DNA from: a virus
Length of the DNA: 21,697 nucleotides
Direction: 5' to 3' (one strand)
IMG/VR virus record: IMGVR_UViG_3300050821_012228
Coordinates: 1 to 21,697 of that record
Shown here: positions 2-21,697 of the stretch, piece after piece
Layout of the letters: each line of letters begins with the position of its first letter
Numbering within the stretch: the first letter of the stretch is position 1
The notes under the pieces: generated by a model
What the model saw: only the letters and a program-made list of their open reading frames with translations
Told to the model about the DNA's origin: nothing
Databases searched by the model: none
Translations under genes and position numbers: made by a program

Positions 2-124
2 CTCGATAGCCAAGCAGACTGCGTGGCAGGTGGCACCGATCCGGCGCAAGAAGCCGAGCCGAATGACGCTCTGGTCTTGGTTCGCCTTTTGGATTTTGAA
101 ACTGACGGGGAATTCGCTCAATGA
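2..124 (+). CDS. C-terminal end of an unknown protein (partial)
   Basis: An open frame enters from the left edge and stops with TGA, leaving about 40 residues. The visible part is acidic and ends in LLDFETDGEFAQ. The stop overlaps the ATG of the next gene (ATGA), so it is very probably the upstream member of the same operon and translationally coupled to the Sak4-like ATPase. No domain can be named from this fragment. In phage recombination modules this position is often a small DNA-binding or host-nuclease-inhibitor protein, but that is only context. Confidence 0.6.
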   Translation, partial: LDSQADCVAGGTDPAQEAEPNDALVLVRLLDFETDGEFAQ

Positions 125-1164
125 CTGACATCCTTTCCTCAATCTCACGCGGCAAACGACCGCAGCGCATCTTCGCTCTTATCTACGGAACAGACGGCGT
201 CGGGAAAAGCTCGATGTGTTCGCATGCACCCAATCCAATCTTTGTCGGAGCTGAGAGAGGCACCGAGCAACTCGACGTCGCCAGGTTCCCGCAGACCGAG
301 ACGATCGGCGATCTCCTGGATCAGCTCCGGGCATTACAAACCGAGAAGCACGAGTTCCAGACGGTCGTCCTCGACAGTCTGGACTGGATTGAACCGTTGG
401 TCTGGAAAGCGGTCTGCGATGAAGCCAAGGTAGAATCAATCGAGCAGGCGTTCGGCGGCTATGGCAAAGGCTATGTCCGCGCGCTCGATCTGTGGCGCAC
501 ACTGCTCAAGGAACTGGCGACCCTGAACCATAAGATGCACGTGCTCATGATCGGGCATTGCATGATTAAGAGCTTTGCGGATCCCGATCTCGCCAACTCT
601 TACGATCGTTATCAGCTCAAGATTAACGACAAGGCTGCGGCGCTAGTTCGCGAGGCAGCTGACGCGGTGCTCTTTGCCCGGTTCGAGACCGAGCTCGTGC
701 GCGAGCAAGGCAACGGCCGATCAAAAGCCAGGGTCCGCGGAGAAGGCGTCCGGATCATGTATACCGAGAGTCGGCCGGCGTTTGACGCCAAGAACCGGTT
801 TGGGCTGCCCTTCGCGATGCCACTGGACTGGAAGACGTTCGGTGACGCGATCCGCTCTTTCTACGGGCTCAAGGATAGCAATGGCAACGGGCATGCCAAG
901 CCGGCGAACGTAGAGCCGCAGACTACGGTTGTGCTAACAGCCAGCGAGTCCAAGGCGCTAACGGAAGTCCGGCAGCTGCTTAAGGCCTCCAGGATTACCG
1001 ACGCCGAAATGCTTGATGTCTTGCGCACAGCGCAGCTGCCGGAGGCTAAGACCGCTACGACACTGGCTGACATCCCGGACAAGACATTGCTGCTGGCCAT
1101 TGAGAGCTGGGAAACCGTGACGCCGTTGGTTCTAGAGCTCCGCGCACAGAAGGTGGCCGCCTGA
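121..1164 (+). CDS. Phage RecA-fold ATPase, Sak4-like / AAA_24 family
   Basis: 347 aa. A Walker A motif, GTDGVGKSS, lies at residues 23-31, a Walker B-like strand TVVLDSLDWIE at about 81-91, and a later strand VLMIGH at 141-146 where the sensor strand is expected. This arrangement near the N-terminus, followed by a region of about 100 residues of variable character, matches phage nucleotide-binding proteins of the AAA_24/Sak4 type. Sak4 proteins are RecA-like single-strand annealing recombinases of phages. The C-terminal third (about 250-347) is low in motifs and may bind partners. The gene overlaps its upstream neighbour (ATGA) and its downstream nuclease (TGATG), so ATPase and exonuclease are made together, as expected for a recombination pair. 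The family assignment is good; Sak4 activity is inferred. Confidence 0.8.
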   Translation: MTDILSSISRGKRPQRIFALIYGTDGVGKSSMCSHAPNPIFVGAERGTEQLDVARFPQTETIGDLLDQLRALQTEKHEFQTVVLDSLDWIEPLVWKAVCDEAKVESIEQAFGGYGKGYVRALDLWRTLLKELATLNHKMHVLMIGHCMIKSFADPDLANSYDRYQLKINDKAAALVREAADAVLFARFETELVREQGNGRSKARVRGEGVRIMYTESRPAFDAKNRFGLPFAMPLDWKTFGDAIRSFYGLKDSNGNGHAKPANVEPQTTVVLTASESKALTEVRQLLKASRITDAEMLDVLRTAQLPEAKTATTLADIPDKTLLLAIESWETVTPLVLELRAQKVAA

Positions 1165-2279
1165 TGCACGCGCCGCTTTTACCCGCTGTAATCGACAACG
1201 ACGAGCGGGCCGGCTATCCGAGCGCGTCGGAGTACGGTCGCCTCGTCAAATGTCGCGCCAGTCATTTAATGACCAAGCGAGCCAAGGCGCTTGGCCAGGT
1301 CGCTCACGAACGTAGCGACGCGGCTGATCTCGGTACAAAGAAGCATCTGGCTAATGTCGAGGGCCCGGACATTTTGTCGCCAAAGGAACGTCAAGATTGG
1401 GAGACTTGCCAGCACAAGCGTGCAGCCTTTCTGACGCAGTGGACCGCTGACTGCGCGCTCCCGGTTGAAGTAGTCAGAGAGGAACGTCTCTGGTTGCGCA
1501 AGGGTCTGCGACCGCTCTTGTCCGGTAAGCCGGACGAAGTCGTGCGCCAGGGCTCCAGAGTAGCTGTGCTCGACCAAAAATACGGTAATCACCGCGTCTC
1601 TGATCCCCGTGAAAACGCGCAGCTTGGCTTGTATGCGCTTTTGGTTGTTCTGGGGGACGGATCTATCACGGAGGTGACTTGCCTGATCCTGTCGCCATTC
1701 TACGACTTTGAGCCGGTCACCTATAGCCGCGCTGAACTGATGCAATTGCATCAATCGGTCCTGGTCGTCGTTGCCAGCCTGGCCGATCCCGGCGATCCAG
1801 TACCCGGCGATCACTGTCATTTTTGTCCGGCCCGGCTGATCTGCGCTGCGGCAAAAGATCAAGCCGCCCAGGCGATGCTGGCCAAGGTGGTCGAGCTGCC
1901 CTTGGGTGAACAGGCCGCCGAATTGTTGGACAACATCAAACGGGCCCAAGCGCTCTTTAAGGAGGTTGAAGCCTATTACAAGCGGGTGCTCGAAGAAACG
2001 CCGGGAGCGATTCCGGGTTGGGCGCTGGAGCCTGGTTACACGCGTCGCGAGATAGCGGACACCGCTGCGCTGCATCAACACGTGGCCGGGCTGTTTTCGA
2101 CTGAGGAATTTCTCTCCACCTGCTCGGTCTCAGTACCGCAACTGGAAAAGTTGTGGGCCAAAAAGAACGCGGTTCCGATCACGCGAGCACGCGAGCCGTT
2201 CAAGAAATTCCTGGGCGCACTATTAACCGAGAAACGCAGTGCCCCGAGCTTAAGCCGGGTCAATAACCGCCTGGAGTAA
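1164..2279 (+). CDS. Cas4/RecB-like PD-(D/E)XK exonuclease with putative FeS cluster
   Basis: 371 aa. Catalytic-core candidates are H61, E106/E107, GKPD with D124, and LDQK with D137 and K139, in the order of the PD-(D/E)XK fold. A single cysteine, C30, precedes the core and three more (C218, C221, C227, in CHFCPARLIC) follow it. That 1+3 pattern is the hallmark of the 4Fe-4S-stabilised Cas4/AddB-type nucleases, and the size and tail resemble phage DUF2800-type proteins. The expected role is trimming of DNA ends to give single strands for the upstream ATPase/annealase, with which it overlaps by TGATG. The last 120 residues have no recognisable motif. No cas1 or cas2 and no CRISPR repeats are present, so a CRISPR role is not supported. 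Confidence 0.8.
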   Translation: MHAPLLPAVIDNDERAGYPSASEYGRLVKCRASHLMTKRAKALGQVAHERSDAADLGTKKHLANVEGPDILSPKERQDWETCQHKRAAFLTQWTADCALPVEVVREERLWLRKGLRPLLSGKPDEVVRQGSRVAVLDQKYGNHRVSDPRENAQLGLYALLVVLGDGSITEVTCLILSPFYDFEPVTYSRAELMQLHQSVLVVVASLADPGDPVPGDHCHFCPARLICAAAKDQAAQAMLAKVVELPLGEQAAELLDNIKRAQALFKEVEAYYKRVLEETPGAIPGWALEPGYTRREIADTAALHQHVAGLFSTEEFLSTCSVSVPQLEKLWAKKNAVPITRAREPFKKFLGALLTEKRSAPSLSRVNNRLE

Positions 2280-3942: not shown

Positions 3943-4605
3943 ATGGCTTTTGATTTGGCAGGCAGCGTTTTTGGGCGATTGACCGCAATTAAGATTGTGG
4001 GCCATACTCATCAGGGGATCCGTCTTTGGGAGTGTCTTTGTAGTTGTGGGCAATTCTCTGTTGTGACAAGCCCTCACCTGCGGAGAGGGCACACCAAATC
4101 TTGCGGCTGTTTGGCCTGGGACAACCCCGGGAGGCCTATTACGCATGGGCATACTCGAAACAGGAAACATTCTTTAACTTATTCTTCTTGGAGGTCGATG
4201 CATCAGAGATGCCGGAACCCTCGGAGTTTGTCATTCAAGAATTACGGTGCTAGGGGGATCAGTATAGCCGAGCGATGGTATAAGTTTGCGAATTTTCTTG
4301 AGGATATGGGCGAGCGTCCTATAGGACTCACCCTCGAAAGACGTAATAATGATTTTGGGTACTTTAAAGAGAATTGTAAATGGGATACTCGGAAGGCACA
4401 AAATCGTAACCATCGGCGAATAAAGTTGACCTTTAAGCAGGCGTGTGAAGTGGCTTTAAGAGCGCTTAAAGGCGAACGGCATAGGCTGATTGCAGGGGAT
4501 TTTGGCATATCCGTAACAATGGTATCCTCTATTGCGACCGGTCGAAAATGGAAAGACGCGGTGAAGTGCGCAGCGGATCAGTTTCAGTTGGAAAGGAAGC
4601 TATAA
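3943..4605 (+). CDS. Homing-type endonuclease: zinc ribbon + HNH/AP2-like core + C-terminal HTH
   Basis: 220 aa. Residues 8-57 form a Cys-rich ribbon seen in many phage free-standing endonucleases: a GRLT motif, then C31, C33, C35 and the pair C54/C56 in SCGCL. Residues 77-156 hold the usual core, with W83, the RCRNP motif, YGARGI, ERW, FLEDMGERP, LERRNND and ENCKWDTRKAQNRN. In relatives LERRNND is normally LDRIDND, so two acidic or neutral positions differ here and activity is uncertain. Residues about 178-203 look like a helix-turn-helix for target recognition. The gene is visibly more AT-rich than its neighbours and has no clear ribosome binding site. It lies exactly between two copies of one domain. 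It looks like a recently acquired selfish gene rather than part of the operon's job. Confidence 0.75.
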   Translation: MAFDLAGSVFGRLTAIKIVGHTHQGIRLWECLCSCGQFSVVTSPHLRRGHTKSCGCLAWDNPGRPITHGHTRNRKHSLTYSSWRSMHQRCRNPRSLSFKNYGARGISIAERWYKFANFLEDMGERPIGLTLERRNNDFGYFKENCKWDTRKAQNRNHRRIKLTFKQACEVALRALKGERHRLIAGDFGISVTMVSSIATGRKWKDAVKCAADQFQLERKL

Positions 4606-4781: not shown

Positions 4782-5221
4782 GCGAGATTCCGCAGCTCAA
4801 GCCGTTGCTCTTGCCATCGACGATCTGGGCTCGGCTCTCGGCCAAAACAGATTCTGAGAACGCGTTGCCGATCAACTTATCGACCTACGTCATCGAGCGA
4901 CTAAAAAAGGATCCGGTCCGCGCGGAGCGTTTAAGCGCGCTGGCGGCCGACATCTGGGACCACTTGGCGGCACGCCGGCCAGGCTGGGGCTCATGGCCTG
5001 AAAGCACCGAGGACGCACTTGCTGTCAGCATGCTCATCAGTCTCGAGATCGAGCACGATGCCGATCGATTGATTCTCGAACTGTCTGAAGAGGAGATAGC
5101 TAAGGTCGAACAACAAAGCCGGGAGCAAGGACTTTCGCTCGAGCAAATCATAATCAATCGCATCGTCGAGCGAGTAGAGGGTCAGGGCGAGGGCGATCAG
5201 TGGAAGGCTACGGAGTCATGA
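4778..5221 (+). CDS. Hypothetical protein with a C-terminal ribbon-helix-helix-like segment
   Basis: 147 aa from the ATG at 4778, chosen because it overlaps the previous stop as ATGA; an upstream ATG at 4637 would put 141 nt into the preceding gene. The N-terminal two thirds are mixed and charged, with a Trp/Pro-rich turn (RRPGWGSWPES). The tail, about residues 105-137, reads LSEEEIAKVEQQSREQG then LSLEQIIINRIVERV. That is the strand-helix-turn-helix pattern of RHH/CopG-type DNA-binding or dimerisation segments. No specific family is recognised. Its 3' end touches a transposon right-end hairpin: the TGA stop is the first part of that hairpin's flank. Confidence 0.6.
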   Translation: MSEIPQLKPLLLPSTIWARLSAKTDSENALPINLSTYVIERLKKDPVRAERLSALAADIWDHLAARRPGWGSWPESTEDALAVSMLISLEIEHDADRLILELSEEEIAKVEQQSREQGLSLEQIIINRIVERVEGQGEGDQWKATES

Positions 5222-5249
5222 ACCCACGGCTAAAGCCCGTGGGCTTCTC
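5218..5249 (-). mobile_element. Orphan IS200/IS605-type right-end hairpin
   Basis: On the minus strand the sequence runs GAAGCCCACGGG then CTTTAGCCGTGGGTTCA. It forms a 7-bp stem (5223-5229 with 5237-5243) and a loop around GCTTTAG, ending in TTCA. This is the typical shape and text of the right end found just after tnpB in IS605/IS1341-type elements, where it is both a TnpA recognition hairpin and the 3' part of the guide (omega) RNA. No tnpB remains next to it: the flanking bases to the right are the start of a plus-strand nuclease gene. I read it as the scar of a lost element. A simple terminator hairpin is the alternative, but the exact GCTTTAGC core argues for the transposon end. Confidence 0.6.
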
Positions 5250-5258
5250 CCCCTTCCT

Positions 5259-5741
5259 GTGACACACCGCCAATCAAACGCGCCCAGATTGGCTCTCAGT
5301 GCGTTGCTCGGTCTATTGCTGGCGAGCGCCGCTCTCGGCCAGGAGGTGGCCTCCGGTGATCTGCCGGATCCGCGACTGACGCCTGGAGCGTGGGATACCC
5401 AAGCGACCACGGACGACGTGTGTACGCCAGGTTACGCGCATGCGCACCGGCCATCGTTCGCGGAGTCAAACGCACTTAAGCACGCGGTCTTCGCGCGATA
5501 CGGGATTGCGTGGAGCGAACATGGAAAATACGAATTGGACCACCTCGTGCCATTAGAGCTCGGAGGTAATAGCTCTATCGAAAACCTTTGGCCCGAACTG
5601 TGGCCCGAAGCAATTGCCAAAGACGCGCTCGAGAACCGGTTGCACGCGCTAGTCTGTGCTGGCGAGCTGTCGTTGCACGACGCGCAGATGCAGATCTCAA
5701 GCGACTGGGAGGCCTGCTATCGGAGGTACATCGGAAATTGA
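5259..5741 (+). CDS. Secreted HNH nuclease
   Basis: 160 aa from GTG. A signal peptide is clear: a short basic start, a hydrophobic core at about 10-25 (LALSALLGLLLASAALG) and probable cleavage near residue 27. The mature part carries DPRLTPGAW, a Cys (C55) in CTPGY, and the HNH core YELDHLVPLELGG with D94-H95, followed by IENLWPE (N109, W111) and KDALENRLH (K121, N126, H129). A second and third Cys (C133, C153) could pair with C55 outside the cytoplasm. This layout is common in small exported HNH proteins of bacteria and phages. It should cut DNA in the periplasm or outside the cell. There is no obvious ribosome binding site, because the orphan transposon end occupies the space just upstream; a TTG at 5289 is an alternative start. 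Confidence 0.8.
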   Translation: MTHRQSNAPRLALSALLGLLLASAALGQEVASGDLPDPRLTPGAWDTQATTDDVCTPGYAHAHRPSFAESNALKHAVFARYGIAWSEHGKYELDHLVPLELGGNSSIENLWPELWPEAIAKDALENRLHALVCAGELSLHDAQMQISSDWEACYRRYIGN

Positions 5742-6802: not shown

Positions 6803-7177
6803 TTATAGGTGTTGATGCCAATACTTGATCTCTGTCTTGGCCGCCTCGTGGTGTTCGCGATCTTTTTTAGAAATCAACTCAATTCGCATCAGCTTGTGAT
6901 GCCGACTCATATCCCTGCGAAAAGCCCACATTCGTTCTTTCCCTTCGTTTAAAACCACGATCGCGTACAAATCCATTTGCTCCGATCCGTCGAACGCCTT
7001 GAAACAGTGCCGCCTCTTATAACTTTCAATATCGGCTGAGGCGCATCTATTTTTATCTATCCAGCTTGCCTCATAGACTGAGGCCAATTCAGAAGTTGCC
7101 TCCAGCGGATTTAACTCTCCAGTCGGCGATTTAGTGCGTTCGAGGATCTCCCGTATGAGTGTATCAGGTGCAGGCAT
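6803..7177 (-). CDS. Hypothetical protein, last gene of the HTH operon
   Basis: 124 aa from the ATG at 7177, chosen because it overlaps the upstream stop as TGATG; an extended ORF to 7237 would only add residues antagonistic to that coupling. The N-terminal half is acidic (LIREILERTKSPTGELNPLEATSELASVYEASW describes its helical character, in pieces), and the C-terminal half is basic with strands (DLYAIVVLNEGKERMWAFRR) and a His/Lys-rich end. It has no recognisable family. Coupled translation with the 254-aa DNA-binding-type protein suggests they act together. Downstream lies repeat copy B. Confidence 0.6.
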   Translation of the reverse strand: MPAPDTLIREILERTKSPTGELNPLEATSELASVYEASWIDKNRCASADIESYKRRHCFKAFDGSEQMDLYAIVVLNEGKERMWAFRRDMSRHHKLMRIELISKKDREHHEAAKTEIKYWHQHL

Positions 7178-7941
7178 CAGTTTTTTCCCTCCCACTGGCT
7201 GGCGCATTCTTTCAGGGTTTCGATCGCCTTTTGCCACAAACCTGTAGTTAGTTGTAATTGCGTGGCTTCCAAGGTGTCTTTGTCATAATCGAGCAGGTCC
7301 ATCGCGATTTCACTTGGCGGTTGTTTGCCCAAAGCAAGAGTGCCTAGAATGATAAAAAGATGACGCGCCTTGATCTCGCGTTCCTGTTTCTCTTTTTGTT
7401 CTCGTTCCCGTCGGGCAGCCATTCGCACTTGTTCTTGTTTCTCGAGTTCACTGAGAGGTTTCGCAAGGATAGCGGTGACCTCGCCGTAGATGGATTTCTC
7501 ATTTTTTGCCGCGGCCTCAGCGATCGCTTTCTCAACGATTTTCGCGACCATCCCGGCAGTAGGTTTTGGTGATAGCCTGGTTGCCGTCTGCCACGCATCT
7601 CGTTGTTGCTCGGGCTCGAGTTTGGTGAGTGGTCGAATTTGACTCTCGGATGTCGGAATGAGACCAATTGGTCTCAAATTTTCAGCAACTTCTGCTGCCT
7701 GGATTAATCGATCAGCCTGACGACGAACCATCGTCCACCGACCTCGGCAATAATCCTCGAATGTAGCAAAGTCTTGCCGGTAAAGTCTCGCTTCACGGAT
7801 ATTCAAAAGAGCATTTCCGACCTCGACAAAGGTCTGCAACCCTTTTTCGATGATCGTTTCACAAGCACGCAGGCTGAGTGATTCTTCGACAGATAGAATC
7901 ATCGATGGCGCGTGCCCGTTCGTTAAGTGATGGGCGCTCAT
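7177..7941 (-). CDS. ParB-like / phage HTH-type protein, paralogue 1
   Basis: 254 aa. Residues about 25-130 form a conserved block: GLQTFVEVGNALLNIREARL, then YRQDFATFEDYCRGRW, a helix ending in RLIQAAEVAENL, and SQIRPLTKLEPEQQRDAW. The same block in the same order occurs in the 18589-19290 protein and, broken, at 5815-6200. The pattern resembles proteins annotated as ParB-like or DUF3102-like in plasmids and phages. It lacks the ParB nucleotide-binding motif, so partition is not shown. Residues about 161-192 are a highly charged probable coiled coil (Arg/Glu/Gln/Lys-rich). It overlaps its upstream neighbour by ATGA and its downstream one by TGATG, so the three genes form a coupled operon. 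DNA binding is inferred from the helical block and context. Confidence 0.6.
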   Translation of the reverse strand: MSAHHLTNGHAPSMILSVEESLSLRACETIIEKGLQTFVEVGNALLNIREARLYRQDFATFEDYCRGRWTMVRRQADRLIQAAEVAENLRPIGLIPTSESQIRPLTKLEPEQQRDAWQTATRLSPKPTAGMVAKIVEKAIAEAAAKNEKSIYGEVTAILAKPLSELEKQEQVRMAARREREQKEKQEREIKARHLFIILGTLALGKQPPSEIAMDLLDYDKDTLEATQLQLTTGLWQKAIETLKECASQWEGKN

Positions 7942-17113: not shown

Positions 17114-17133
17114 GGGCAGAACAGTTTGCTCAC
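17114..17133 (-). repeat. 20-nt intergenic repeat, copy 2
   Basis: Minus-strand GTGAGCAAACTGTTCTGCCC. It begins at the stop codon (TGA) of the terminase-small-like gene and precedes the 88-aa gene. It matches 16784-16803 at 19 of 20 positions, although the flanks are unrelated. Confidence 0.55.
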
Positions 17134-17975
17134 CCGCGGCCGGCTTTCTTGACCAGCGCGCTCCAGCCTTCCGGTCCCATCAAATCCTGGATCGCCGCGT
17201 GCAGATCACGCAGCGTAATAACCTCACTATTGAATTCGACCGTTGTTGATTGTGATGCAAGTCCGCCCAGAACCTCGCGCACCAAAGTACCGCACACAAA
17301 AACAGCCGCTTCCTTCGCGATCAGCCTGGCATTGTCGCCTTGACTGAGTTGTGCCCACCAACCCGGCGATGGTTCGCCTACGGGCTTGGTGATCGGCGCC
17401 GAAACCGTCGCGTGGACGACAGTTGGAACCTCGGGAAAGCCAGGCGCTCCATTGCCGCCTCTTTTGTCTTTCAGGAGCCGCTCAATCCTGGCGTCCACCT
17501 CACGAACTCTCGAGCTTATTTCGCCGGCGACTTCCGCGGTGACGACCAGCGTGTTGTTAATCGTCTGGTTGGTGGTGTTGATTTGAAGCTGTATCTCAGG
17601 CCGCGAAAAATCAGACGGAAATCGGCGCTCTAAAATCCAGGCGGCCGCCGAGAAATTCTCCTCCGCGTTTGCCTCAATCTTTTTTAACAACCTCAACGCC
17701 GTCTTGCCAGCCGCTTCCTCTACCTGCTTGGCAAACACCGGATCTTTGCGCCGCCACTCGTTAAATGCGTCGTCTGATATCCCGCACGCTAAACACGCGA
17801 TGCGATACGGCGCGCCCGTCTCGATGGCTGCCAACAACGCTTTCTCTAATTGCGGCGTTCGTTTACCCGGGCGCCCGTTTGCAGTGAACTTCGGCTGATA
17901 ACCAGCTCGTCGTTTGCTCTGATCCCGTTTCGGTACGGGTTTGACGTCGGTGGAAAAAGAAGAAACTGATGACAT
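17130..17975 (-). CDS. Terminase small subunit-like HTH protein
   Basis: 281 aa from the ATG at 17975 (GGGAG about 11 nt upstream); a start at 18044 would overlap the preceding gene by 65 nt. After a basic tail, residues about 43-127 match a common phage module: LEKALLAAIETGAPYRIAC, then ACGISDDAFNEWRRKDP (helix-turn-helix), then a helix with FSAAAWILERRFPSDFSRPE. Proteins with this HTH followed by AAAWxLERRxPxxFxRPE are usually annotated as terminase small subunit or as a DNA-binding relative. The second half, including SSRVREVDARIERLL, may oligomerise. If it is TerS it recognises the packaging site, but terL is not next to it, so a regulatory role remains possible. Confidence 0.6.
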   Translation of the reverse strand: MSSVSSFSTDVKPVPKRDQSKRRAGYQPKFTANGRPGKRTPQLEKALLAAIETGAPYRIACLACGISDDAFNEWRRKDPVFAKQVEEAAGKTALRLLKKIEANAEENFSAAAWILERRFPSDFSRPEIQLQINTTNQTINNTLVVTAEVAGEISSRVREVDARIERLLKDKRGGNGAPGFPEVPTVVHATVSAPITKPVGEPSPGWWAQLSQGDNARLIAKEAAVFVCGTLVREVLGGLASQSTTVEFNSEVITLRDLHAAIQDLMGPEGWSALVKKAGRG

Positions 17976-17979
17976 GTCT

Positions 17980-18303
17980 TCAATTTCTCCCGCCAGCCGC
18001 AACTTGAATTCTTCTTTCAGCGTCAGCCAACAGGATGACCGCAAGCCAATCCGCGAGCAGTCCTTCGGTCACGCCGGCAATCCCAAACTCGCGTTGAAAC
18101 AGTTTCTCGAGATGCTCATTCTCGTAACCCAAAGTCAATGCAGCTCTCAGTGACAAAGCCATGATCTCGGCATCCTCCCACGCACTGTATCGATCAAAAT
18201 CACTGCCGCCAATGATCGCGTCGGCTTGATCGATGAACTCGAGCAACTTCGCACGCTGATCGACTGAAAGCGTTTCGAGATACTCTGGCTCCGGGAGGCT
18301 CAT
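17980..18303 (-). CDS. Hypothetical acidic helical protein
   Basis: 107 aa, start overlapping the upstream stop as ATGA. Acidic and mostly helical, with LETLSVDQRAKLLEFIDQAD at 9-28, GGSDFDRYSAWEDAEIMALS in the middle and LLADWLAVILLADAERR near the end. It precedes the terminase-small-like gene by 4 nt. There is no known family; it could be a partner of the DNA-binding proteins on either side. Confidence 0.55.
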   Translation of the reverse strand: MSLPEPEYLETLSVDQRAKLLEFIDQADAIIGGSDFDRYSAWEDAEIMALSLRAALTLGYENEHLEKLFQREFGIAGVTEGLLADWLAVILLADAERRIQVAAGGRN

Positions 18304-18596
18304 TTCATTGCCTCCTTAATCAGTTTCGAGAGCTCGATCAGGTCAACTTTCCGCTCCGCGCCGAGCCCGTCCAAATATTCACGGATTGTTCGCGCTACGG
18401 TCGCGTGCTTCTGCTCACGCTCCGCGATCTCAGCGAACCGGCGCTCAAGCTCCGCGGCCTGCTCAGAATGGGACTTGTACAACAACAGATCTGCGCGTTT
18501 CGCGCTGATCAAACCGTTTTCGTAAGCCTCACGCACTTCGGGCGAAGCGCGTCGGCGGATCCGCGAGATCCTCTTGGTTTGTCCAGGGCTAAGCAT
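18300..18596 (-). CDS. Small basic helical protein with ParB-like segment
   Basis: 98 aa. Residues 10-40 (ISRIRRRASPEVREAYENG, then LISAKRADLLL) resemble the helices that follow the HTH in ParB-type proteins, where RxAPEVREAYExGxIS is common. The rest is a charged helix (ELERRFAEIAEREQKHATV). It overlaps the preceding ParB-like gene by 8 nt. Together they may represent a two-part DNA-binding factor. The partition function is not demonstrated. Confidence 0.5.
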   Translation of the reverse strand: MLSPGQTKRISRIRRRASPEVREAYENGLISAKRADLLLYKSHSEQAAELERRFAEIAEREQKHATVARTIREYLDGLGAERKVDLIELSKLIKEAMK

Positions 18597-19290
18597 CGGT
18601 CAGCTCCGGAAATCTTTTAGAGAGGATGTCGCAGCAACTTAAACACCGGTCAGCCATGATCCGGCAAGCCGTAAAGGCCGAGAGCGCTTGCGCGAACTTC
18701 TCAACATGCGAGGTCACCAGATTCGCATCGAAGCCTTTATAAGCTGACAAACGGCGGACAGGAGAAATAAAGCTTTGCTCCCTTGTGGGGTGCTCGCGTT
18801 TACGCGACTTATGCCCGGTGCCGTTGGTCCCCGGTGATTCGATCGCGTTCTTAATCGTGCGACAAATCTTTGAGACAATCGGCTGAGTCGGCCCACACTT
18901 TGGCGATGTCGCCTCGACCAGTTGCCAGCTCACGGGTTGGAGCGCAGCGGGCAAAGAGGCCAGTGGCCTGATCGTCGCCTCGGTCGTATTGGGCGGCAAC
19001 GTCACGCCGCTATCTAGCAATGTTTGAGCTGTGCTGGCAGACCTGATCACCTGGTCAGTTGTGCTCCTGGCCAAGCCGAATGTCTCGCGGCAGAAGCTTT
19101 CGAAAGTGTCATGGGTCTCCCGATAAAGCCGGCTGCTGCGCAGCTCCAATAAAGCTGCCCCAACCGCAAGGAATTGCGATAGGCCGCGTTCAACGGTGCG
19201 AATCAACTGCGCGCGCCTGATTTTTTCCGCGGCTGTGAGCGGTTGCGGCGCGGACTCCGGAGCCTTGGGTTGTTCGATTAATGCGACCAC
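18589..19290 (-). CDS. ParB-like / phage HTH-type protein, paralogue 2
   Basis: 233 aa from GTG at 19290. Residues about 33-130 share the block seen at 7177-7941: GLSQFLAVGAALLELRSSRL, YRETHDTFESFCRETFGLA, a helix with QVIRSASTAQTLL, and EATIRPLASLPAALQPVSW. The C-terminal half differs, being shorter and without the charged coiled coil, and it carries three Cys near the end (CRIMADRCLSCC). It is the first gene of the 10-kb minus-strand operon and has a good promoter whose -10 box lies 9 nt before the start codon. Being first, it may act as the operon's regulator. DNA binding is inferred from the shared helical block; no ParB CTPase motif is present. Confidence 0.6.
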   Translation of the reverse strand: MVALIEQPKAPESAPQPLTAAEKIRRAQLIRTVERGLSQFLAVGAALLELRSSRLYRETHDTFESFCRETFGLARSTTDQVIRSASTAQTLLDSGVTLPPNTTEATIRPLASLPAALQPVSWQLVEATSPKCGPTQPIVSKICRTIKNAIESPGTNGTGHKSRKREHPTREQSFISPVRRLSAYKGFDANLVTSHVEKFAQALSAFTACRIMADRCLSCCDILSKRFPELTDA

Positions 19291-19299
19291 GGGTGTACG

Positions 19300-19329
19300 A
19301 TATTACCCATGTTCTGCGCTGCCATTCAA
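19300..19329 (-). promoter_or_regulatory. Promoter of the long minus-strand operon, nearly leaderless
   Basis: On the minus strand TTGAAT (19329-19324), an 18-nt spacer and TAATAT (19305-19300) stand 9 nt before the GTG start at 19290, so little or no 5' leader is expected. The interval GGGT...ACCC (19291-19308) is a short dyad flanking the -10 box. The divergent gene's ATG (19309) lies inside the spacer, so the two genes share control DNA. Confidence 0.6.
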
Positions 19330-19812
19330 GAATTCGCTTTCAGCTTGCCCACAGATGCGGGTTTGTTGCGCGCCGGTGTGTCTGCCGGCGAACCGATTGA
19401 TCAAACCGAAGTGCTCTCCTTAGCTGCTATGGCGCAGTCGCTTTTCGTCACAGCCACGATTGAAAGCCGCAGGCTGGACAGAGTTGAGGATTGCCGTCGG
19501 CTATGGGGAGAAACGGCGAGAGTGTTCGAAGAGCTCTGTTCAGCGTGGGCCGGCGTCCAGTCCGATGATTCATCAGTCGCGTGGCTGCGCGGTCGGCTTG
19601 AGCATTACCGGTCGTTATGCGTTGACCGCGTTGAGCTTTTTTCAATCACCGAATCAGCACGCCGGGAGTTCGCCGAGCGCAGGGCGGCCGACTCCGATAA
19701 TGAACATGCGTTCGGGACCCGAGGCGATATCGAACCGGTTCGCGAGTTCTCGAAATTAGAGACGGCCTCAATCGAGCGCGCGTACCGCCGGCATCAGGGC
19801 GTCTCCATATAG
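19309..19812 (+). CDS. Hypothetical protein, divergent from the late operon
   Basis: 167 aa. Helical and charged throughout: LSLAAMAQSLFVTATIESRR, then DCRRLWGETARVFEELCSAW, SSVAWLRGRLEHYRSLC and ESARREFAERRAADS. Four Cys are scattered without zinc spacing. It has no membrane segment and no known family. It starts 18 nt from the opposite GTG; a weak -10 (TACGAT) sits 7 nt before its ATG, so it too may be leaderless. Read with the 233-aa protein across the shared promoter, it could be part of a two-way switch, but that is speculation. Confidence 0.5.
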   Translation: MFCAAIQEFAFSLPTDAGLLRAGVSAGEPIDQTEVLSLAAMAQSLFVTATIESRRLDRVEDCRRLWGETARVFEELCSAWAGVQSDDSSVAWLRGRLEHYRSLCVDRVELFSITESARREFAERRAADSDNEHAFGTRGDIEPVREFSKLETASIERAYRRHQGVSI

Positions 19813-19944
19813 CGCTCTGTTTGGCGCCTTGGCAAGTGAGCTTGAAAAACGAAAAATGCGTTATGCTGCAGCCACCTTGAGGATGCCTATCGCCCCGCGC
19901 GGAGTGGGCGATCCCTCGCCCGAGTTTGGGCGTCGCCCGAGTAT

Positions 19945-19967
19945 CACGGCAGCGGACGGGTGCCGTG
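19945..19967. repeat. 7-bp hairpin just outside the tnpB right end
   Basis: CACGGCA and TGCCGTG enclose 9 nt. On the minus strand it lies where the guide portion of a TnpB-associated RNA would be, about 8 nt past the right-end hairpin's flank. A direct repeat TCGCCCGAGT (19916-19925 and 19933-19942) lies nearby. Confidence 0.4.
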
Positions 19968-19974
19968 CTCCAGA

Positions 19975-20003
19975 GTGAACACTCTGTCAGCTAAAGCAGA
20001 CAG
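19975..20003 (-). mobile_element. IS605-type right end of the tnpB element
   Basis: On the minus strand CTGTCTGCTTTAGCTGACAG forms a hairpin (20003-19984) with the GCTTTAGC core typical of IS200/IS605 right ends, followed by AGTGTTCAC at the presumed cleavage border. The tnpB stop codon (TGA, 19989-19987) lies within the hairpin. In this family the right end also forms the 3' scaffold of the omega RNA, with the adjoining 16-20 nt serving as guide. Confidence 0.7.
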
Positions 20004-20874
20004 CTTCTTGGAGCACGCCACCCAACGGCAACGTTACGCTCCACAAGCCCGTTCCGGACTCGGCGAACGCTCTGCGGCAAATATTCCGCGCAGCGTTCAC
20101 GTCTCTTTGTAGGACGAGCCCGCAGTCGCATCGATGCACACGAACGCTCAGAGATTTCTGAACGGTCACACCGCAATTACTGCACTCTTGGCTTGTCCCG
20201 CGAGGATTGACCTCGACTACCTCAACCCCAGCTCTTTCAGCCTTGGATTTGAGCGTTGTGATGAATTGGCTCCAACCAGCATCACTGATCGACCGGGCCA
20301 GTCTGCCGTTCCCGACCATCCCGTGGATGTTCAGGCGTTCGACAGCAATCTTGCCGTATCGACCGACTAAATTATTCGACACTTTGTACGCGTACTCACG
20401 CCGCAGATTGGCTACACGCCGATGCTTGCGCCTCAAGTTTTTGACAGCTTTCCTACGGTTGTGCCCACCTTTCTTCTTGCGGCTGACAGCCCGGCCAGCA
20501 CGACGCATATCGGGCAACTCTTCTTTCAGGAAGCGCGGATTCTCCACGTGCTTGCCGTCGCTGGTTGAAAGGAAGTGCTCAAGACCAACGTCGATGCCGA
20601 CAGCCGGATTGATATTACCAAGTTTGGGCGGATCAGGCTGTTCAGCGAATGCGACCACGAACCATTTATCCACTTCGCGTTTGATCGAGAGCGTTTTGAT
20701 TGTGCCTTCAACCTCACGGTGCAGGCAGGCGCGGATCGTTCCGACGTGCTGGACGCGCAACTTGTTTCCTTTGAGCCGCGCTCCGTCACCGTGGCTGCCG
20801 TATTCCCATGCACCTGCCGCAATAAATTCTGCGTCAACCCAGCTCACTTCCAAGTCATAACCAAATCGGAGCAT
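19987..20874 (-). CDS. tnpB: TnpB (IS605 OrfB family), N-terminally truncated
   Basis: 295-aa frame, of which residues from about 28 (GDGARLKGNKLRV) are TnpB; the first 27 are antisense to the HNH fragment. Full-length relatives are about 370-400 aa, so about 100 N-terminal residues (the REC/WED part that holds RNA and the target motif) are gone. The RuvC domain is intact: D95 (VGIDVGLEHF), E179 (IAVERLNIHGM) and D258 (QRDVNAARNI), with zinc-finger cysteines C231, C234, C249 and C251. TnpB is an RNA-guided nuclease that helps IS200/IS605 elements persist. No tnpA is near. Without the N-terminal part it is unlikely to cut DNA on its own. It runs opposite to the HNH gene it interrupts. Confidence 0.9.
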   Translation of the reverse strand: MLRFGYDLEVSWVDAEFIAAGAWEYGSHGDGARLKGNKLRVQHVGTIRACLHREVEGTIKTLSIKREVDKWFVVAFAEQPDPPKLGNINPAVGIDVGLEHFLSTSDGKHVENPRFLKEELPDMRRAGRAVSRKKKGGHNRRKAVKNLRRKHRRVANLRREYAYKVSNNLVGRYGKIAVERLNIHGMVGNGRLARSISDAGWSQFITTLKSKAERAGVEVVEVNPRGTSQECSNCGVTVQKSLSVRVHRCDCGLVLQRDVNAARNICRRAFAESGTGLWSVTLPLGGVLQEAVCFS

Positions 20875-21069
20875 TCAAAGATCCACGCCCTTCAACCACA
20901 ATCGCACTGCAAGCGTGGTCACGAATTAACGCCTGAGAATAGCCATTGGTTCATGGGTCATAGAGGAACAATGCGCAGACAATGCCGGATCTGTATCAAG
21001 GAATGGAGCCGTCTTAAGCACCTAAAGCGCAGATCTGCTCGGCGCTTAGAGCGAATCGCGATATCCTGA

Positions 21070-21191
21070 ACCACGATCGTCGGACGAAGATCAGCAAGTT
21101 TGGCCAACCCGCGCAAGCCCGGCAACGTCGAATCTGCCGACACGCCCTGGTCGGGCTGCGGGAGAACGGCCGGCATGCGGTAGGTGGACAT
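21070..21191 (-). pseudogene. 5' fragment of a gene broken by the HNH insertion
   Basis: An ATG at 21191 overlaps the stop of the zinc-ribbon gene (TGATG) and opens a frame starting MSTYRMPAVLPQPDQG. It looks like protein up to LADLRPTIVV and then enters the antisense of the HNH gene's 3' end at about 21070. The translational coupling shows that this was once a working gene start. 'RPTIVV' is where ERCC4-type phage nucleases continue with DTREQ, so an interrupted ERCC4-family nuclease is a candidate, but only the strand before the motif is preserved. Its 3' part is not found in the window. Confidence 0.45.
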
Positions 21192-21568
21192 CACCTTTTC
21201 GCGGCTCGCTCCGCACTGAAAACCCGGTGAGAGTCCACCTTTTTCATGGACGCGACACCTTTGTGCTGAATCAAAACAAGGTGCCAGACGTGATGGCATC
21301 CCTCACACCAGTATTCTATCCGCAATGATGAACGTCTTTCCGAAGTCGCATTCTCGAAAATGAGGCTGGTCCCATGGTAAATTTCAGCTTCGTGCTCATC
21401 GGTTCCCAGTTCAGTACCAACCCGAAGGATATGATTGTATTGGCTTTCACATTCCGGGCACAGGATCATCTCTTCGTGAGTTTCGTCGATGTCTCTATGT
21501 GTCCGTTGTTTGCGTAAGGCTTCTAGCACTTCAGGCTTAAAAACGTGTTGTGGGTTTAGTGATGTCAT
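21191..21568 (-). CDS. Zinc-ribbon hypothetical protein
   Basis: 125 aa from the ATG at 21568 (GAGG 5-6 nt upstream); a longer reading to 21604 would overlap the previous gene. Two Cys pairs, CPEC (C37, C40) and CEGC (C88, C91), probably hold one zinc and bring together strands MILCPECESQYNHILRV and LRIEYWCEGCHHVWHLVLI. This resembles the small zinc-ribbon proteins common in replication/recombination regions of phages. It couples downstream by TGATG to the broken gene and follows the upstream gene by 7 nt. The molecular role is not known. Confidence 0.65.
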   Translation of the reverse strand: MTSLNPQHVFKPEVLEALRKQRTHRDIDETHEEMILCPECESQYNHILRVGTELGTDEHEAEIYHGTSLIFENATSERRSSLRIEYWCEGCHHVWHLVLIQHKGVASMKKVDSHRVFSAERAAKR

Positions 21569-21575
21569 AAAGGCC

Positions 21576-21697
21576 TCAGGGAAAAGGAACGTACATCTTG
21601 CCATCCGGGCCGCGCTCCCAGCCGGCCGTGAGCAACTCAGCGTCTTTAAGGGCCTGCAGTTCTTCGGGCGTGCCCCACTCCCACTCGCAATAGCGCC
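21576..21697 (-). CDS. C-terminal end of an unknown protein (partial)
   Basis: An open minus-strand frame enters from the right edge and ends with TGA 7 nt before the zinc-ribbon gene's ATG. About 39 residues are visible, with WEWGTPEELQALKDAELL and GWERGPDGKMYVPFP. The aromatic-rich end suggests a small folded protein. The stop codon is part of the next gene's ribosome binding site (TGAGG), so the two are coupled. Family not recognised. Confidence 0.55.
   Translation of the reverse strand, partial: RYCEWEWGTPEELQALKDAELLTAGWERGPDGKMYVPFP

What the first reader, a model, noticed from the sequence alone, without database searches (positions are those of the whole stretch)
19856..21191. Three-layer nested insertion: phage gene, HNH endonuclease, tnpB, then one deletion
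Seen: the tnpB frame with its right end is flanked on the plus strand by what look like the two ends of one HNH gene, and the tnpB N-terminus and HNH middle are both missing at a single junction near 20790-20809. The HNH 3' end in turn abuts a minus-strand gene start that is coupled (TGATG) to its upstream neighbour and then breaks off. Inference: a homing endonuclease entered a phage gene, a tnpB element then entered the endonuclease gene, and one deletion disabled both. Stacks of competing homing parasites are rarely caught this clearly.
Basis: partly seen in the sequence, partly recalled or inferred. Interest (0 to 1): 0.72.

Follow-up and report, generated by a model that had tools for sequence, protein, structure and literature searches.

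The report
Wrecked tnpB fused to wrecked endonuclease
In a phage genome fragment, a decayed tnpB transposon gene and a decayed HNH endonuclease gene are joined at one deletion scar next to a broken phage nuclease gene: a tidy example of ordinary mobile-element decay, but the claimed three-layer nesting is not borne out.

Summary
The core observation holds. A tnpB with an intact right end (boundary at 19975) loses its N-terminus at 20808, and an HNH gene reading the other way loses its N-terminus at about 20809-20815. Both breaks are one junction of at most 6 bp. The HNH 3' end abuts a minus-strand gene that overlaps its upstream neighbour by TGATG and stops after about 41 codons. That gene is probably an ERCC4-type nuclease: the closest relative (G002) has an ERCC4 C-terminus in the same syntenic place and orientation, and the fragment ends at "RPTIVV", where ERCC4 proteins continue "DTREQ".

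The nesting is not supported. The "left HNH fragment" (19856-19975) shows no HNH similarity. It lacks the CxxW-type motif seen in 76 of 79 relatives, is 17 GC points richer than the HNH part, scores below shuffled versions of itself, and is hairpin-rich. Nesting would also leave the ERCC4 remainder to its left, and that is missing.

One deletion between side-by-side elements (HNH gene in or at the ERCC4 gene, tnpB beside it) explains every loss. This is ordinary degradation, with two oddities: a 15-bp inverted repeat straddling the tnpB right end, and a relative's tnpB rearranged exactly at its right end.

The parts
19309..19812 (+). Small phage gene (167 aa, unknown function), left border of the rearranged region
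   Evidence: 65% aa identity over 138 residues to a gene in relative G002 (L258:1178-1585), in the same position next to the 18589-19290 homologue; positive coding score
19813..19974 (.). Its first about 16 nt next to 19975 would be the guide of the tnpB reRNA
   Evidence: No family hits, no similarity to G002, folds at -61.3 kcal/mol, HNH tests failed
19958..20023 (.). 15-bp inverted repeat (arms 19958-19972 and 20009-20023, 14 of 15 paired) straddling the tnpB right end
   Evidence: only such repeat in the window; 0 of 2000 shuffles; not seen at other right ends
19975..20007 (-). tnpB element right end (hairpin and terminal TTCAC); element boundary at 19975
   Evidence: Motif shared with right ends of L082, L087, L010, L101 and others
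19987..20808 (-). tnpB remnant: RuvC motifs and zinc finger kept; about 110 N-terminal residues and the left end lost
   Evidence: closest G002 copy 57% and 51% aa
20809..20814 (.). Deletion junction between tnpB and HNH remnants
   Evidence: End of TnpB homology at 20808, start of HNH homology at 20815
20815..21069 (+). C-terminal part of an HNH endonuclease gene; about 60-75 N-terminal residues lost, including the first metal-site His of the DHL segment
   Evidence: phrog_826 4e-16; up to 42% aa identity to mycobacteriophage HNH proteins; alignments
21070..21191 (-). First about 41 codons of a broken phage gene, probably an ERCC4-type nuclease, ending at RPTIVV where ERCC4 proteins continue DTREQ
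   Evidence: Frame and TGATG overlap; ERCC4 C-terminus in the same place and orientation in G002; motif PTIVVDTREQ in L264/L265; no direct homologue of the 41 aa found
21191..21604 (-). Intact upstream phage gene (137 aa, zinc-ribbon-like, weak hit), overlapping the broken gene by TGATG
   Evidence: weak zinc-ribbon matches below cut-off

Best explanation
This is a degraded cluster of two selfish nuclease genes in a phage genome. An HNH endonuclease gene came to lie in or at an ERCC4-type nuclease gene, just before its catalytic DTREQ motif, in opposite orientation. A tnpB element (IS200/IS605 type) stood next to it. A single deletion from inside tnpB to inside the HNH gene then removed the tnpB left end and N-terminus, the rest of the ERCC4 gene and the HNH N-terminus, leaving two divergent, truncated, almost certainly inactive genes joined at 20809-20814. 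Shown: the two truncations at one junction, the intact right end, the broken minus-strand gene, and the ERCC4 C-terminus in a close relative at the equivalent place. Inferred: identity of the 41-aa fragment as ERCC4, the order of insertions, the single deletion, and homing as the means of HNH entry.
For: TnpB homology ends at 20808 and HNH homology begins at 20815. Right end at 19975. The left flank is not HNH. Relative G002 is collinear with the window up to the 19309-19812 gene and has the ERCC4 C-terminus (phrog_3490, 8e-8) in the matching orientation further along. The window has no ERCC4 C-terminus anywhere, so it was lost, which one deletion explains. tnpB elements insert in this phage group at other sites too (G002 copy).
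Against: The ERCC4 identity of the 41-aa fragment rests on synteny and a short motif; direct searches found no homologue. No genome with the intact arrangement was found, so one deletion against several events cannot be proven. The contig is metagenomic, and a chimeric join at 20809-20814 cannot be excluded without reads.
Confidence: 0.6

Rival explanations
1. One reading: HNH entered the phage gene, tnpB entered the HNH gene, and 19856-19975 is the HNH N-terminal part; a deletion then removed the middle.
Against: No HNH similarity, CxxW missing, GC 17 points higher than the C part, alignment score below most shuffles. No ERCC4 remainder left of it, so a second deletion would be needed. Upstream of GCWxW these proteins are not conserved, so a very N-terminal piece cannot be strictly excluded.
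Confidence: 0.12
2. The junction is an assembly chimera: reads from a tnpB element and from an HNH-carrying phage were joined, and no such deletion exists in nature.
For: Single metagenomic record. tnpB is a repeated element, and the relative's tnpB is also oddly rearranged, joined at its right end to an inverted tnpB 5' half.
Against: The genes left of the junction are syntenic to G002. The tnpB here has diverged from the G002 copy (57%), so no near-identical repeat to mis-join was seen.
Confidence: 0.18
3. Several independent events rather than one deletion: the tnpB and HNH genes decayed separately and the ERCC4 gene was lost in another event, for example by recombination between phages.
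For: Phage mosaicism is common (general knowledge); collinearity with G002 ends at the 19309-19812 gene.
Against: Both truncations share one junction of at most 6 bp, which independent decay would not produce.
Confidence: 0.1

Closest known systems
IS200/IS605-family TnpB elements (ISDra2 TnpB with reRNA; PMC8612924)
   Same: OrfB_IS605 and Cas12f1-like TNB domains, RuvC motifs, zinc finger, conserved right-end hairpin with terminal TTCAC
   Different: About 110 N-terminal residues and the left end deleted; no tnpA beside it
Free-standing phage HNH endonucleases (phrog_826; mycobacteriophage GageAP gp46, Plumbus gp66)
   Same: CRNKFCVNPAHF core followed by a second C..GH..TPEN..CR.C module, up to 42% aa identity
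   Different: Only the C-terminal part is present; the first HNH histidine segment is gone
Phage ERCC4-type nucleases (phrog_3490; phi105 gp42, L264/L265)
   Same: Fragment ends in the hydrophobic strand PTIVV that precedes DTREQ in this family; relative G002 has the C-terminus in the syntenic place
   Different: Only about 41 codons remain, and they are not directly alignable to known members

Membership tests
IS200/IS605 tnpB | OrfB_IS605 and TNB (zinc finger, RuvC-III) domains | tested here: met
   Pfam 88.6 and 84.5 bits, above cut-offs
IS200/IS605 tnpB | Right-end hairpin with conserved terminus after the tnpB stop | tested here: met
IS200/IS605 tnpB | Complete N-terminal domain and left end | tested here: not met
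   Homology ends at 20808; HNH sequence follows
IS200/IS605 tnpB | Active RNA-guided DNA cleavage | not testable with these tools
   Expected to be lost, since the N-terminal part is missing
Phage HNH endonuclease (phrog_826) | C-terminal HNH core CVNPxH and Cys module | tested here: met
Phage HNH endonuclease (phrog_826) | N-terminal GCWxW...GYG...AHR...DH segment | tested here: not met
   Absent right of the junction and absent in 19856-19975
Homing endonuclease gene | Insertion into a gene that is intact in relatives | tested here: inconclusive
   Relative G002 keeps the ERCC4 C-terminus, but its contig starts inside the gene
ERCC4-type nuclease (fragment 21070-21191) | VVDTREQ and GDY/ERK active-site motifs | tested here: inconclusive
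   Fragment ends at PTIVV, directly before the DTREQ motif; no profile hit

The most novel reading that the evidence does not exclude
A recurrent process in this phage group breaks tnpB elements from the left end while keeping the right end exactly intact, for example conflict between an RNA-guided nuclease and a protein-guided homing nuclease, each cutting the locus of the other. Two different broken copies with intact right ends (window and G002), one of them fused to an HNH gene, would be its traces.
Probability: 0.07. Interest if true: 0.6.

Novelty: new member of a known kind. Interest (0 to 1): 0.22.

Why it matters
It records two kinds of selfish nuclease, RNA-guided TnpB and protein-guided HNH, sharing one phage locus, both dead after what was probably one event. 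It shows that such elements co-occur and decay together. It does not document stacked homing parasites in the strict nested sense, so it tests no open question by itself.

Tried and rejected
(1) Left fragment as HNH N-terminus: rejected. (2) Left fragment as part of the tnpB reRNA scaffold: rejected, since the right end lies at 19975, so the flank holds at most a 16-nt guide. (3) Left flank as ERCC4 remnant or as sequence shared with G002: no similarity above shuffles. (4) Close relatives of the HNH part, of the zinc-ribbon gene and of the 41-aa fragment in viral contigs or phages: none close. (5) PF02732 (ERCC4) finds nothing in any of the five relatives, including G002 where phrog_3490 does, so Pfam is blind here. 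(6) A 16-nt near match between the HNH 3' end and G002 (GTxGTTCAGGATATCG) was matched or beaten by only 1 of 200 shuffles, but it was found by scanning several stretches and has no extension; not used. (7) Rfam: no hit at gathering thresholds.

Full report
What the record is. The window is the whole of a 21,697-base virus record from IMG/VR. It carries Sak4-like annealing protein, DUF2800/exonuclease, integrase, terminase small subunit and a large amidase-containing protein, so it is a tailed-phage fragment. No annotated phage matches the region at DNA level. The best relative, G002 (IMGVR_UViG_3300050821_017518), was found through the terminase gene. It shares many genes at up to 87% aa identity and is syntenic across the left border of the finding.

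tnpB. The minus-strand frame 19987-20874 is a TnpB by Pfam and PHROG. Its right end is the conserved hairpin ending in TTCAC at 19975; the same motif follows the tnpB match in at least nine other loci. In ISDra2 the reRNA comes from the 3' end of tnpB plus the right end, and its last 16 nt come from the flank (PMC8612924), so the flank next to 19975 would be the guide. In an alignment with 21 relatives the window protein follows the family up to the W codon at 20806-20808 and is unrelated beyond it, where relatives have roughly 110 further residues. The apparent start ATG at 20874 lies in antisense HNH sequence.

HNH. The plus-strand part 20809-21069 matches phrog_826 from model position 132 of 281 and mycobacteriophage HNH proteins at up to 42% aa identity. 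In 79 viral relatives that are not cut off, at least 56 residues precede the point where the window's homology starts; 72 have DH/HH (or QH) just before it and 76 have C-x-x-[WFYIV] further up. The fragment is therefore truncated, and the two truncations meet within 20809-20814.

The left fragment. No profile or tblastn search supports this. The whole HNH profile over all six frames of the record sees only the C-terminal part. The fragment reads DGCRAP where the family has GCWxW. It scores 31 against the N-terminal regions of relatives, where its own shuffles average 35 and 174 of 200 equal or beat it; this test is of modest power, since some real relatives also score 30-35. Its GC is 67.2% against 49.8% in the HNH part, while relatives differ by -1.8 +/- 5.1 points. 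Its coding score is negative, though so is that of the real HNH part, so that measure says little. It is hairpin-rich. It is best read as intergenic DNA.

The broken minus-strand gene. The frame starting at 21191 overlaps the stop of the upstream gene (TGATG) and is open for 41 codons to the HNH stop codon. In G002, beyond the homologue of 19309-19812 and three small ORFs, the contig opens inside an ERCC4-type nuclease gene in the matching orientation (phrog_3490, 8e-8). The fragment ends at RPTIVV, and two viral ERCC4 proteins read PTIVVDTREQ, with about 20-30 residues before it. An ERCC4 identity is thus likely but inferred; nothing aligns directly to the 41 residues.

History. In a nested history the ERCC4 remainder would have to lie left of the left fragment. 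Only 43 bp are there before a gene conserved in G002, and no ERCC4 sequence exists elsewhere in the window. If tnpB stood beside the HNH gene instead, a single deletion from about tnpB codon 112 to about HNH codon 70 removes everything that is missing. This is the more economical model (0.6). Assembly chimera stays possible (0.18).

Oddities. A 15-bp inverted repeat with one mismatch straddles the tnpB right end (arms 19958-19972, 20009-20023). It is the only one of its kind in the window, none of 2000 shuffles has one, and the ten other right ends examined lack it. In G002 the only tnpB is split: its 3' half and right end face its 5' half, which lies inverted directly after the right end (L258:4296-4871 and 4872-5381). 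This could be an internal inversion or one tnpB inserted in another.

Verdict. Decayed tnpB and HNH genes are common in phages (general knowledge). The few literature searches made here found no description of this particular combination in the held library, but it is a new instance of a known kind.

Noticed in passing
window 19958-19972 and 20009-20023: 15-bp inverted repeat, 14 of 15 paired, one arm in the tnpB 3' coding end and one in the flank that would serve as guide; 0 of 2000 shuffles, absent at other right ends. The guide would pair with its own reRNA. Unexplained.
   Followed up: partly
L258:4296-5381 (relative G002): tnpB split into a plus-strand 3' half with right end and a minus-strand 5' half that begins directly after the right end: inversion with a breakpoint exactly at the element end, or tnpB inserted in tnpB.
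   Followed up: partly
window 3943-4605, +: A second HNH endonuclease of another family (phrog_374, 2.7e-51) that appears intact, about 48% GC.
   Followed up: no
window 7177-7941 and 18589-19290, -: Two paralogous genes (40% aa over 111 residues), of unknown function, in one phage fragment.
   Followed up: no
window 121-2279, + versus 17130-18044, -: DUF2800 (and Sak4 where the contig reaches it) faces away from the terminase gene, whereas in relatives L166, L167 and L169 they run in the same direction: a rearranged module order.
   Followed up: no
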